NCBI GenBank assembly: GCA_029977425.1
Contig: JAPOKX010000003.1
Span: 1 to 39,817, forward strand
Direction of reading: 5' to 3'
Length of the DNA stretch: 39,817 bases
Origin: Actinomycetota bacterium
GTDB taxonomy: Bacteria > Actinomycetota > Actinomycetes > S36-B12
Part shown: piece by piece, positions 4,664 through 9,436 of the stretch
How positions within the stretch are numbered: position 1 is the stretch's first letter
Layout: the number at the start of each line of letters is the position of its first letter
Notes under the pieces: generated by a model
Seen by the model: the letters and a program-made list of their open reading frames with translations, nothing else
The model's database searches: none
What the model was told of the DNA's origin: nothing
Translations under genes and position numbers: made by a program

Positions 4664-5302
4664 TCAGCCTGACGCTGTGGACACCCCCGGGAGCCTCCAG
4701 CTGACCCGATGCCACGGCGAGGGCCCATGGCGCTCGAGTGCAGCGATGTGCTCGGGTGCTGCGTACCCCTTGTTGCCGCTCCAGCCGTACCCCGGGCACT
4801 GCTCATCGAGAGCCACCATGTGCGCATCCCTCGTGACCTTGGCGATGATGCTCGCCGCGGCAACCGCCGCGCACGTGGCATCCGCCTGGATGCGCGTCAC
4901 CACCTGGGAGCCGGGCGCGACTCGCGAGATCCAGTCGTGCTTGCCGTCGAGGAGCACGAGGTCGGGACGCACGCCCGTCGCGTTGAGCGCTCGGGCCGCC
5001 GCGAGGGCGAGTGCGCCGATGATCCCGATCGAGTCGATCTCCACGGATGAGGCCATGCCCACCGCGCTTCGATTCGCCCAGGCTCGCACGCGCGGCGCAA
5101 GGCGTTCCCGCGTCGCCCTGTCGCATTCCTTGCTATCGCGCACTCCCTGCGGCGCCGCAGCGGAAGCCGCGTCGATGATGACCACGCCCACGGCAACGGG
5201 TCCCGCGAGCGCACCGCGGCCAACCTCGTCGACGGCGGCGAGGACCGCGCCCGGACGCGCTTCGCGCAACAGTGCACGTTCGACACGGAGGGTGACCGCC
5301 AT
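4664..5302 (-). CDS. rnhB: Ribonuclease HII
   Basis: AAVDEVGRGALAGPVAVGVVII, DSKECDRATRERLAP, LLDGKHDWI, ASIIAKVTRDAHM. Start ATG 5302 (MAVTLRVERALLREARP); the longer ORF to 5677 runs out of frame through lepB. Confidence 0.9.
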   Translation of the reverse strand: MAVTLRVERALLREARPGAVLAAVDEVGRGALAGPVAVGVVIIDAASAAAPQGVRDSKECDRATRERLAPRVRAWANRSAVGMASSVEIDSIGIIGALALAAARALNATGVRPDLVLLDGKHDWISRVAPGSQVVTRIQADATCAAVAAASIIAKVTRDAHMVALDEQCPGYGWSGNKGYAAPEHIAALERHGPSPWHRVSWRLPGVSTASG

Positions 5303-5310
5303 GGAGCGCC

Positions 5311-5934
5311 TCAGCCCACTGGACCTCGGGGCGGCCAGGCCACGAGGACGACGCGCCCGAGCACGTCGTCGGCCGCGAGGGTCCCGTCGCCGGTACCGAG
5401 CAGGGCGCGGCTGTCGCGCGCTGTCGCCCGGTCGTCCGCGAGGACGAAGACCCTCCCCTTCGGCACGGTGACGTCGAAGTCGACCTGGTCGGTGGCACCG
5501 GCGACGTAAGGCTCGTCGAGAGGAGCCCCGTCGATGGTGATCCGCCCGGCACCATCGCAGCAGACCACGCGCTGCCCGCCGACGGCGATGATGCGGGCGA
5601 CTGAGGTGTCGGAGGGGGTAGCCCACCCCTCGGGGGTGCGCACCATCACGACGTCCCCGCTCGCGGGCTCGCCCCATGCCGTCACGACCACGCGATCGCC
5701 CGCCGAGAGCGTCGGCTCCATGGCGTCATCCGCGACGTGCGCCACCTGGCCGACGACCAGCCTGGCGATGATGAGGAACGCCACGACGATCGCAGCGACG
5801 ATTCCCGCCTCGCGCGCGACGCGTACAGCCCACTGGCCAGCCGAGCGCTTGGGCCGGGGCGCGGCGTGACGGCCCCGAACGACCGGGATGGGCTGGGTGT
5901 CCTCGTCGGGGCGGCGAACCGACGGCACGGTCAC
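5311..5934 (-). CDS. Signal peptidase I-like (S26) protein with apparent loss of the catalytic Ser and Lys
   Basis: 207 aa; one N-terminal TM segment; VADDAMEPTLSAGDRVVV, SVARIIAVGGQRVVCCDGAGRITIDGAPLDEPYV and VFVLADDRATARDSR align with the neighbouring LepB, but the catalytic positions are Ala. Confidence 0.8.
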   Translation of the reverse strand: MTVPSVRRPDEDTQPIPVVRGRHAAPRPKRSAGQWAVRVAREAGIVAAIVVAFLIIARLVVGQVAHVADDAMEPTLSAGDRVVVTAWGEPASGDVVMVRTPEGWATPSDTSVARIIAVGGQRVVCCDGAGRITIDGAPLDEPYVAGATDQVDFDVTVPKGRVFVLADDRATARDSRALLGTGDGTLAADDVLGRVVLVAWPPRGPVG

Positions 5935-6695
5935 GGCGTGGATCCGGACCCGTCTAGGGCCGGCTGCTCGAAGGTCTGCGGGATCTCGAGGATCTGGGCG
6001 TTGCCGAGTGGCCAGACAACGGCGAAGGCACGGCCGATGACTCGGTCGACCGGGACGAAGCCGCCCCCCGGGTCGCCCATGTGGGATCGCGAGTCGGCCG
6101 ACGCCGATCGGTGGTCGCCCATGACCCAGAGGGTCCCCTCGGGGACGAGGACATCGAAGGGTTGCTTGCTCGGCGGATTGTTGCGATAGAGGTAGGCCTC
6201 CTCGTCGAGCGGAACGCCGTTGACGGTGATCCGCCCATCGACGTCGCAGCAGACGACCCGGTCGCCCCCCACTCCGATCACGCGCTTGATGAAGTCCGTG
6301 TCGCGCGGTGGCGCGAGTCCGACGATCTCGCCGAGCAGGCGGCCGACGACCTCGACGGGCGAGCGATCGGGTTCGACGATGTCGCCAGTGATGAAGGAGC
6401 CTGTGCCATCGAAGACGATGACATCGCCGCGCTCGATCGGGCGTAGGTGGTAGACGACCTTGTTGACGAGAACGCGGTCACCCACCTGGAGGGTGTCCTC
6501 CATCGAGCCCGAGGGAATGTAGAACGCCTGGACCAGGAAGGTCTTGACGACGAAGGCGACGAGGAACGCCCCCACGATGAGCAGGGGGAACTCCAGCCAA
6601 GCCGGGATGCGCGGACGCTTGCGATCCTGTGGCGACACGCCCTCGGACGCGTCTCGGTCCACGTGGGTTCCTTCGCGCGGACCCGTCTCGCTCAT
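5931..6695 (-). CDS. lepB: Signal peptidase I
   Basis: 254 aa; YIPSGSMEDTLQVGDRVLVNKVVY (catalytic Ser), FIKRVIGVGGDRVVCCD (catalytic Lys), MGDHRSASADSRSHMG; ATGA overlap with the downstream S26 gene. Confidence 0.93.
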   Translation of the reverse strand: MSETGPREGTHVDRDASEGVSPQDRKRPRIPAWLEFPLLIVGAFLVAFVVKTFLVQAFYIPSGSMEDTLQVGDRVLVNKVVYHLRPIERGDVIVFDGTGSFITGDIVEPDRSPVEVVGRLLGEIVGLAPPRDTDFIKRVIGVGGDRVVCCDVDGRITVNGVPLDEEAYLYRNNPPSKQPFDVLVPEGTLWVMGDHRSASADSRSHMGDPGGGFVPVDRVIGRAFAVVWPLGNAQILEIPQTFEQPALDGSGSTP

Positions 6696-6734: not shown

Positions 6735-7100
6735 TCACTCCGCGTTGGCGGGCGTGGTGTCGCGCAGCTCCTTGATCTTGGCGGCCTTGCCGCGAAGGCT
6801 GCGCAGGTAGTAGAGCTTGGCGCGGCGCACGTCGCCACGGGACACGAGCTCGACCTTGTCGATGATCGGAGTGTGCAGCGGGAAGGTGCGCTCCACGCCG
6901 ACGCCGTAGGAAACCTTGCGCACGGTGAATGTCTCGCGGACGCCATCACCCGCACGACCGATCACGACGCCCTGGAAGACCTGGACGCGAGTCTTGTTTC
7001 CTTCGACGACCTTGACGTGCACCTTGACGGTGTCACCGGGACGGAAGTCGGGAATGTCGGTGCGGAGGGAGGCGGAGTCGAGATCGTCGAGTGTCTGCAT
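6735..7100 (-). CDS. rplS: 50S ribosomal protein L19
   Basis: [47 protein letters not shown]...[44 protein letters not shown]; start ATG 7100. Confidence 0.97.
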
Positions 7101-8769: not shown

Positions 8770-9396
8770 TCAGGCCTCGGTGGACTCGGCCGCGGCCTCG
8801 ACGGCCTCGGCGACGGCCTCATCCGCAACGACTGCAGCGGCGTCGGCGACAGCATCGGCCTCGACGGCAGCCTCGACGGCGGCCTCGGCCTCCGCGGCGC
8901 TGACCTCGCCGGCATTGGCCTCGGCGATCTCGACGATGGCCTCGGCCTCGGCGAGCACGGCGTCGTCAGCAGCGGCAACAGCGACAGCTTCGGCGACAGC
9001 GGCGTCGGCAACCTTCTCGGCAACCTTGCGCGGCGTCGGCGTCTTGGGCTCGTCGGCAGCCTGCTTGACGGCAGCCTCGTATGCGACGACCTTGGACTCC
9101 TTGGGCGCAGCGACCTTGAGGGTGCCCTCCTGGCCCGGCAGTCCCTTGAACTTCTGCCAGTCGCCGGTGATCTTCAGCAGCACGAGGACAGCATCGGTGG
9201 GCTGGGCGCCGACCTTCAGCCAGTGCTGGGCGCGATCGGAATCGATCTCGATGAGGCTGGGATCCTGCATCGGCTGGTAGACGCCGATCTCCTCGATCGC
9301 GCGGCCGTCGCGCTTGGTGCGCGAGTCGGCGACGATGACGCGGTACTGGGGGGCGTGGACCTTGCCCACGCGCTTCAACTTGATCTTGACGGCCAC
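8770..9396 (-). CDS. rpsP: 30S ribosomal protein S16 with long Ala/Glu-rich C-terminal extension
   Basis: [80 protein letters not shown], then ~110 aa of Ala/Glu/Val/Asp low complexity. Likely start GTG 9396; the ORF track extends to 9426. Confidence 0.92.
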
Positions 9397-9422
9397 GGCC
9401 GGCACTGCTCCATTCGATTCGT

Positions 9423-9436
9423 CCACCCGAGGGTGG
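9423..9436 (-). promoter_or_regulatory. Small hairpin in the rpsP 5' region
   Basis: CCACCC-GA-GGGTGG inverted repeat about 27 nt upstream of the likely rpsP start. Confidence 0.3.

What the first reader, a model, noticed from the sequence alone, without database searches (positions are those of the whole stretch)
5311..6695. Tandem signal peptidases in which the downstream copy has lost both catalytic residues
The two overlapping S26 genes align well around both catalytic motifs. The upstream copy has YIPSGSMEDTLQVGD (catalytic Ser) and FIKRVIGVGGDRVVCCD (catalytic Lys). The downstream copy has VADDAMEPTLSAGD, with Ala (codon near 5722-5724) replacing the Ser, and SVARIIAVGGQRVVCCD, with Ala (codon near 5596-5598) replacing the Lys. 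The fold-defining segments (VVCCD..GRIT..G.PLDE, VFVLADDR...DSR) and an N-terminal TM are kept, so this looks like a maintained pseudoenzyme rather than a decayed gene. ATGA coupling to the active LepB suggests a partner, regulatory or substrate-binding role. There is a precedent: staphylococcal SpsA is a catalytically deficient SPase next to SpsB. I do not know whether this actinobacterial pair has been described.
Basis: partly seen in the sequence, partly recalled or inferred. Interest (0 to 1): 0.72.

Follow-up and report, generated by a model that had tools for sequence, protein, structure and literature searches.

The report
Catalytically dead twin signal peptidase, maintained
Next to the working enzyme that trims exported proteins, this actinobacterium and its near relatives keep a second copy that has lost its cutting residues but is still protected by selection, so it probably does something other than cutting; similar dead copies are known in staphylococci and streptococci.

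Summary
The window (a Candidatus Nanopelagicales MAG) holds rplS-lepB1-lepB2-rnhB. LepB1 has the Ser/Lys dyad (Ser64, Lys137); LepB2 has Ala71/Ala113. This is not a one-genome point loss. In all 11 sampled species of the genus and all 4 of its sister genus, LepB2 lacks the catalytic Lys (A, V, M, G, E or L) and 11 of 15 also lack the Ser. LepB1 keeps Ser/Lys wherever readable, and LepB2 is Ser/Lys in 66 of 82 family members. One separate loss occurred (G017); class-wide, 84 of 85 readable copies are Ser/Lys. The dead clade also mostly lost the residues equivalent to E. coli Ser88 and Ser278, but kept the fold residues, membrane helix, open frame and coupling to lepB1. Omega is 0.06-0.15 against 0.02-0.04 for LepB1, and neutrality is strongly rejected. 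So it is a maintained pseudo-signal-peptidase: Lys lost first, Ser later, several times. No new conserved catalytic residue appeared. Substrate-contact side chains are also relaxed, unlike SipA, which slightly favours a structural partner role with LepB1; that role is inference. The kind is known (SpsA, SipA); this clade appears undescribed in the papers searched.

The parts
5311..5934 (-). lepB2: pseudo-signal-peptidase (S26 fold), 207 aa, one N-terminal TM helix (model helix 32-61)
5722..5724 (-). Ala71 of LepB2 at the catalytic Ser position
5596..5598 (-). Ala113 of LepB2 at the catalytic Lys position
5931..6695 (-). lepB1: active-type signal peptidase I, Ser64/Lys137
6504..6506 (-). Ser64 of LepB1, catalytic nucleophile
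6285..6287 (-). Lys137 of LepB1, catalytic base
5931..5934 (-). GTGA overlap: GTG start of lepB2 overlapping the TGA stop of lepB1
6735..7100 (-). rplS upstream, conserved neighbour (ATG near 7100)
4664..5302 (-). rnhB downstream, conserved neighbour

Best explanation
LepB2 is a membrane-anchored, non-proteolytic type I signal peptidase homologue, maintained by selection in two sister genera of Nanopelagicales. In their common ancestor LepB2 lost its catalytic Lys; Ser and the supporting Ser88/Ser278 positions were then lost repeatedly, while fold, TM helix and translational coupling to the active LepB1 stayed. Most likely mechanism: LepB2 is made next to LepB1 and acts as a non-catalytic partner or scaffold of LepB1 at the membrane, for example by stabilising it, presenting a subset of preproteins or tuning its access. 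Shown by sequence: dyad loss, orthology, conservation, coupling of the genes. Inferred: lack of activity, physical partnership with LepB1, effect on secretion.
For: Dyad absent in 15/15 species of g1+g11, which form one clade in a tree of neighbouring genes (SH-aLRT 96) and in the LepB2 tree (93; LepB1 and LepB2 split at 100). LepB1 is Ser/Lys wherever readable. Residues equivalent to Ser88, Ser90, Lys145 and Ser278 are invariant in 55 active LepB2 but retained in the dead clade at 20, 27, 0 and 7%; Met91, Arg146, Asp273, Arg275, Asp280, Arg282 and the Cys-Cys pair are kept in all. Relaxation is concentrated at the active site and cleft (11 of 13 against 14 of 47 conserved columns, Fisher p 5e-4). 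ML omega 0.062 (g1) and 0.147 (g11), 2*delta lnL 860 and 214 against omega 1. The lepB2 start overlaps or directly follows the lepB1 stop in all 15. AF2 model pLDDT 86.8; best PDB match is the inactive SPase homologue SipA, then E. coli LepB and SpsB.
Against: No interaction or activity data. Gene adjacency predates the loss, so it does not by itself prove a new partnership. LepB2 evolves about 3 times faster than LepB1, so constraint is reduced. A heterodimer model could not be run with the tools.
Confidence: 0.5

Rival explanations
1. SipA-like: LepB2 works independently of LepB1 as a peptide-binding factor or chaperone for particular exported or surface proteins, for example in sortase-dependent assembly.
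For: The best fold match is SipA of S. pyogenes, an inactive SPase homologue essential for pilus polymerisation (PMC4049620). Some cleft residues (Met91, Leu95, hydrophobic 86 and 144) are kept.
Against: Other cleft side chains (84, 87, 132, 143) are relaxed, unlike SipA, whose cleft is reported as strongly conserved (PMC4049620). Near-complete genomes with dead LepB2 lack any sortase match: G003 96%, G005 90%, G017 98% complete. The gene sits in a housekeeping locus, not in a pilus cluster.
Confidence: 0.25
2. A relic under relaxed constraint that is slowly being lost; retained so far by chance or by operon structure, for example to keep translation running into rnhB.
For: Omega is about 3 times higher than for LepB1 and higher than for active LepB2 of other genera; some families of the order have lost one of the two copies.
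Against: Open in 15 of 15 species at pairwise dS around 1; amino-acid level purifying selection with 2*delta lnL of 214 to 860; selective retention of fold residues.
Confidence: 0.17
3. LepB2 still cleaves, with migrated catalytic residues or with the retained Ser alone in the S/E and S/G species.
For: Ser is retained in four of the 15 (and in G017), so loss was stepwise.
Against: Lys is absent in all 15; no column gained a conserved Ser, His, Lys, Asp, Glu or Cys in the dead clade; Ser88 and Ser278 equivalents are mostly lost.
Confidence: 0.04
4. Assembly or binning artefact.
For: All genomes of the genus are draft assemblies.
Against: The same loss is seen in 15 independent assemblies with different substitutions and intact synteny.
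Confidence: 0.01

Closest known systems
SpsA of Staphylococcus aureus (inactive SPase I homologue beside active SpsB)
   Same: Pair of an active and a dyad-less type I signal peptidase; SpsA is reported as lacking both catalytic residues and dispensable (PMC12445088). That the two genes are adjacent is from general knowledge.
   Different: Different phylum and locus; no orthology beyond the S26 family was tested; here a graded series of losses is visible among species.
SipA (LepA) of Streptococcus pyogenes pilus clusters
   Same: SPase fold without Ser/Lys (Asp/Gly there), membrane anchored, best structural match of the LepB2 model (PMC4049620).
   Different: SipA lies in pilus gene clusters and keeps its peptide cleft; LepB2 lies at rplS-rnhB, its cleft side chains are partly relaxed, and sortase is absent from several carriers.
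Tandem SPases of other Actinomycetes (such as the multiple Sip enzymes of Streptomyces)
   Same: Tandem S26 genes with CCD and GDxRxxSxDSR-type motifs in related genomes.
   Different: Readable copies there keep Ser/Lys (84 of 85; the exception is the third copy of Kocuria palustris, Ala/Lys).

Membership tests
Type I signal peptidase homologue (Pfam PF10502, S26) | Significant profile match over the domain | tested here: met
   PF10502 E 1e-26, TIGR02227 E 3e-26, both over the curated cut-off
Type I signal peptidase homologue (Pfam PF10502, S26) | SPase fold with N-terminal TM helix | tested here: met
   AF2 model pLDDT 86.8, helix 32-61; matches SipA, LepB and SpsB structures
Active signal peptidase I | Ser nucleophile and Lys general base | tested here: not met
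   Ala71/Ala113; Lys absent in all 15 of the clade
Active signal peptidase I | Cleavage of preproteins | not testable with these tools
   needs biochemistry
Pseudoenzyme of the SPase I family (SpsA/SipA kind) | SPase fold lacking the dyad, no replacement catalytic residue | tested here: met
Pseudoenzyme of the SPase I family (SpsA/SipA kind) | Maintained as an intact gene under purifying selection | tested here: met
SipA pilus factor | Located in a sortase-pilus gene cluster | tested here: not met
   rplS-lepB1-lepB2-rnhB locus; no sortase match in G003, G005, G017
SipA pilus factor | Conserved peptide-binding cleft | tested here: inconclusive
   Positions 91, 95, 86 and 144 kept; 84, 87, 132 and 143 relaxed

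The most novel reading that the evidence does not exclude
These bacteria have an obligate two-subunit signal peptidase, one catalytic and one pseudo-catalytic chain encoded as a coupled pair: a bacterial heteromeric signal peptidase that arose by loss of catalysis in one tandem paralogue, with living species showing the intermediate steps.
Probability: 0.22. Interest if true: 0.75.

Novelty: new member of a known kind. Interest (0 to 1): 0.45.

Why it matters
Bacterial type I signal peptidases are usually described as single-chain enzymes, and the roles of their dead paralogues (SpsA, SipA) are poorly explained. Here a housekeeping tandem gives a natural series: active/active in most of the family, then Lys lost with Ser kept, then both lost, always with the first copy intact. 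That makes it testable which interactions, rather than catalysis, selection keeps in a signal peptidase paralogue, and whether a bacterial signal peptidase can be heteromeric.

Tried and rejected
Point loss in one genome: rejected, 15 species share it. Decay: rejected as sole explanation by codon models and intact frames. Migrated catalytic residue: no gained conserved polar residue. Natural fusions of the two copies: the whole-genome tool listed 463-532 aa frames spanning both copies in some relatives, but the genes are separate under table 11; in G056 the stops between them are all TGA, so no fusion is claimed. Sortase dependence: not required. A first class-wide search failed on the server and was repeated with fewer genomes. 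A Kocuria genus search could not be centred on a named record. A mistyped fetch of an annotated region gave nothing. The first codon-model output did not show omega; it was rerun.

Full report
What is there. On the minus strand the window carries rplS, lepB1 (5931-6695), lepB2 (5311-5934) and rnhB, with a GTGA overlap between the two lepB genes. Both proteins are S26 signal peptidase homologues by Pfam and NCBIfam, 38% identical to each other. LepB1 has IPSGSM and FIKRV; LepB2 has VADDAM and SVARI, so Ser and Lys are both Ala at codons 5724-5722 and 5598-5596. The window lies in a 79% complete MAG; the closest named records are an uncultured bin (L035) and a Candidatus Nanopelagicales MAG (L036), so the order name rests on that record title.

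How widespread. I pulled the locus from 79 genomes of the order, aligned the S26 domains and read the dyad, then added 18 more family genomes. LepB1 is Ser/Lys wherever readable. LepB2 is Ser/Lys in 66 of 82 readable family members (48 and 18). The 16 exceptions are all 11 species of the window's genus (AA 3, AV 1, AM 2, GM 1, SG 2, SE 2), all 4 of genus g11 (AL), and one of three g8 species (G017, SE). In a draw from the class, 84 of 85 readable S26 copies in about 45 genomes were Ser/Lys; the exception, Ala/Lys, is the third tandem copy of Kocuria palustris, which had been found through a DDAMEPTL pattern and so is not a random draw. The class sample was taken from listed best matches, so rare divergent copies could be missed.

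History. In a tree of rplS+lepB1+rnhB the two genera g1 and g11 form one clade (SH-aLRT 96), with the Ser/Lys genus g7 beside them; the dead state needs two changes on the tree. LepB1 and LepB2 separate cleanly (100), and the 15 dead LepB2 form one clade within LepB2 (93), so they are orthologues of the active LepB2 of relatives and not a new paralogue. Lys is missing in all 15 while Ser persists in four, so the simplest order is one early loss of Lys followed by several losses of Ser. G017 is a separate loss with a long branch, also with Lys replaced and Ser kept. Trees are quick searches without bootstraps.

Maintained or decaying. None of the 15 frames is broken (in G009 the gene is split over two contigs), and in each the start of lepB2 overlaps or lies within a few bases of the lepB1 stop. 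Codon models give omega 0.062 for LepB2 in g1 and 0.147 in g11, against 0.020 and 0.044 for LepB1; omega 1 is rejected with 2*delta lnL of 860 and 214. In genus g6, where LepB2 is active, both copies have nearly the same omega (0.035 and 0.033). Pairwise estimates agree in direction. So the dead copy is under clear but roughly threefold weaker constraint. Synonymous sites are near saturation in some pairs, so absolute omegas are rough.

What was lost and kept. Using motif-based E. coli numbering, Ser88, Ser90, Lys145 and Ser278 are invariant in 55 active LepB2 and mostly gone in the dead clade, while Met91, Arg146, Asp273, Arg275, Asp280, Arg282 and the Cys-Cys pair stay. Of columns conserved in active LepB2, 11 of 13 active-site or cleft columns are relaxed against 14 of 47 others (p 5e-4; the list of cleft residues is from my knowledge of the E. 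coli enzyme). No new conserved polar residue appeared. The window's own subclade also lacks an insert of about 25 residues between the two catalytic boxes. The predicted structure (pLDDT 86.8) is an SPase fold with one TM helix; the best PDB match by E-value is S. pyogenes SipA, itself a dyad-less SPase homologue.

What it does. LepB1 is the only full-length, dyad-bearing S26 protein found in the window's genome, which is incomplete; the other hit, on contig C33, is a short S26-like protein. SipA shows that a dead SPase can be essential for a surface-assembly process (PMC4049620), and SpsA that a dead SPase can coexist with an active one (PMC12445088). The sortase route is not general here: three carriers of a dead LepB2 that are 90-98% complete lack any sortase match. 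Because cleft side chains are relaxed as well, simple retention of ordinary signal-peptide binding is less likely than in SipA. I favour a structural or regulatory partner of LepB1, made in coupled fashion, at modest confidence; that step is inference.

Novelty. No paper found in the searched library describes this, but the library is open-access only. The kind, an inactive type I SPase homologue, is known; this clade and its graded loss at the housekeeping locus are the new part.

Noticed in passing
L037:2005-3681: Kocuria palustris has three tandem S26 genes; the third has Ala at the Ser position with Lys kept, a probable independent loss in another lineage.
   Followed up: partly
L072-L079 (families f3, f4, f6 of the order): Some families keep only a LepB1-type copy (f4), others only a LepB2-type copy (f6, part of f3), so either member of the tandem can be lost.
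   Followed up: partly
L087:2735-2776 (G056) and relatives: The whole-genome tool reported a 480 aa stop-free frame across two lepB genes that are separated only by TGA codons, which suggests a TGA-sense code was assumed for those genomes; recoding not examined.
   Followed up: no
window 8770-9426: The ORF that looks like ribosomal protein S16 has a long Ala/Glu/Val-rich C-terminal extension (218 aa in total).
   Followed up: no
L003:859-1809: Short S26-like protein elsewhere in the genome (GDSMAPAL, VKRLV, GDN..SRDSR), resembling a Ni-SOD maturation protease; not tested.
   Followed up: no
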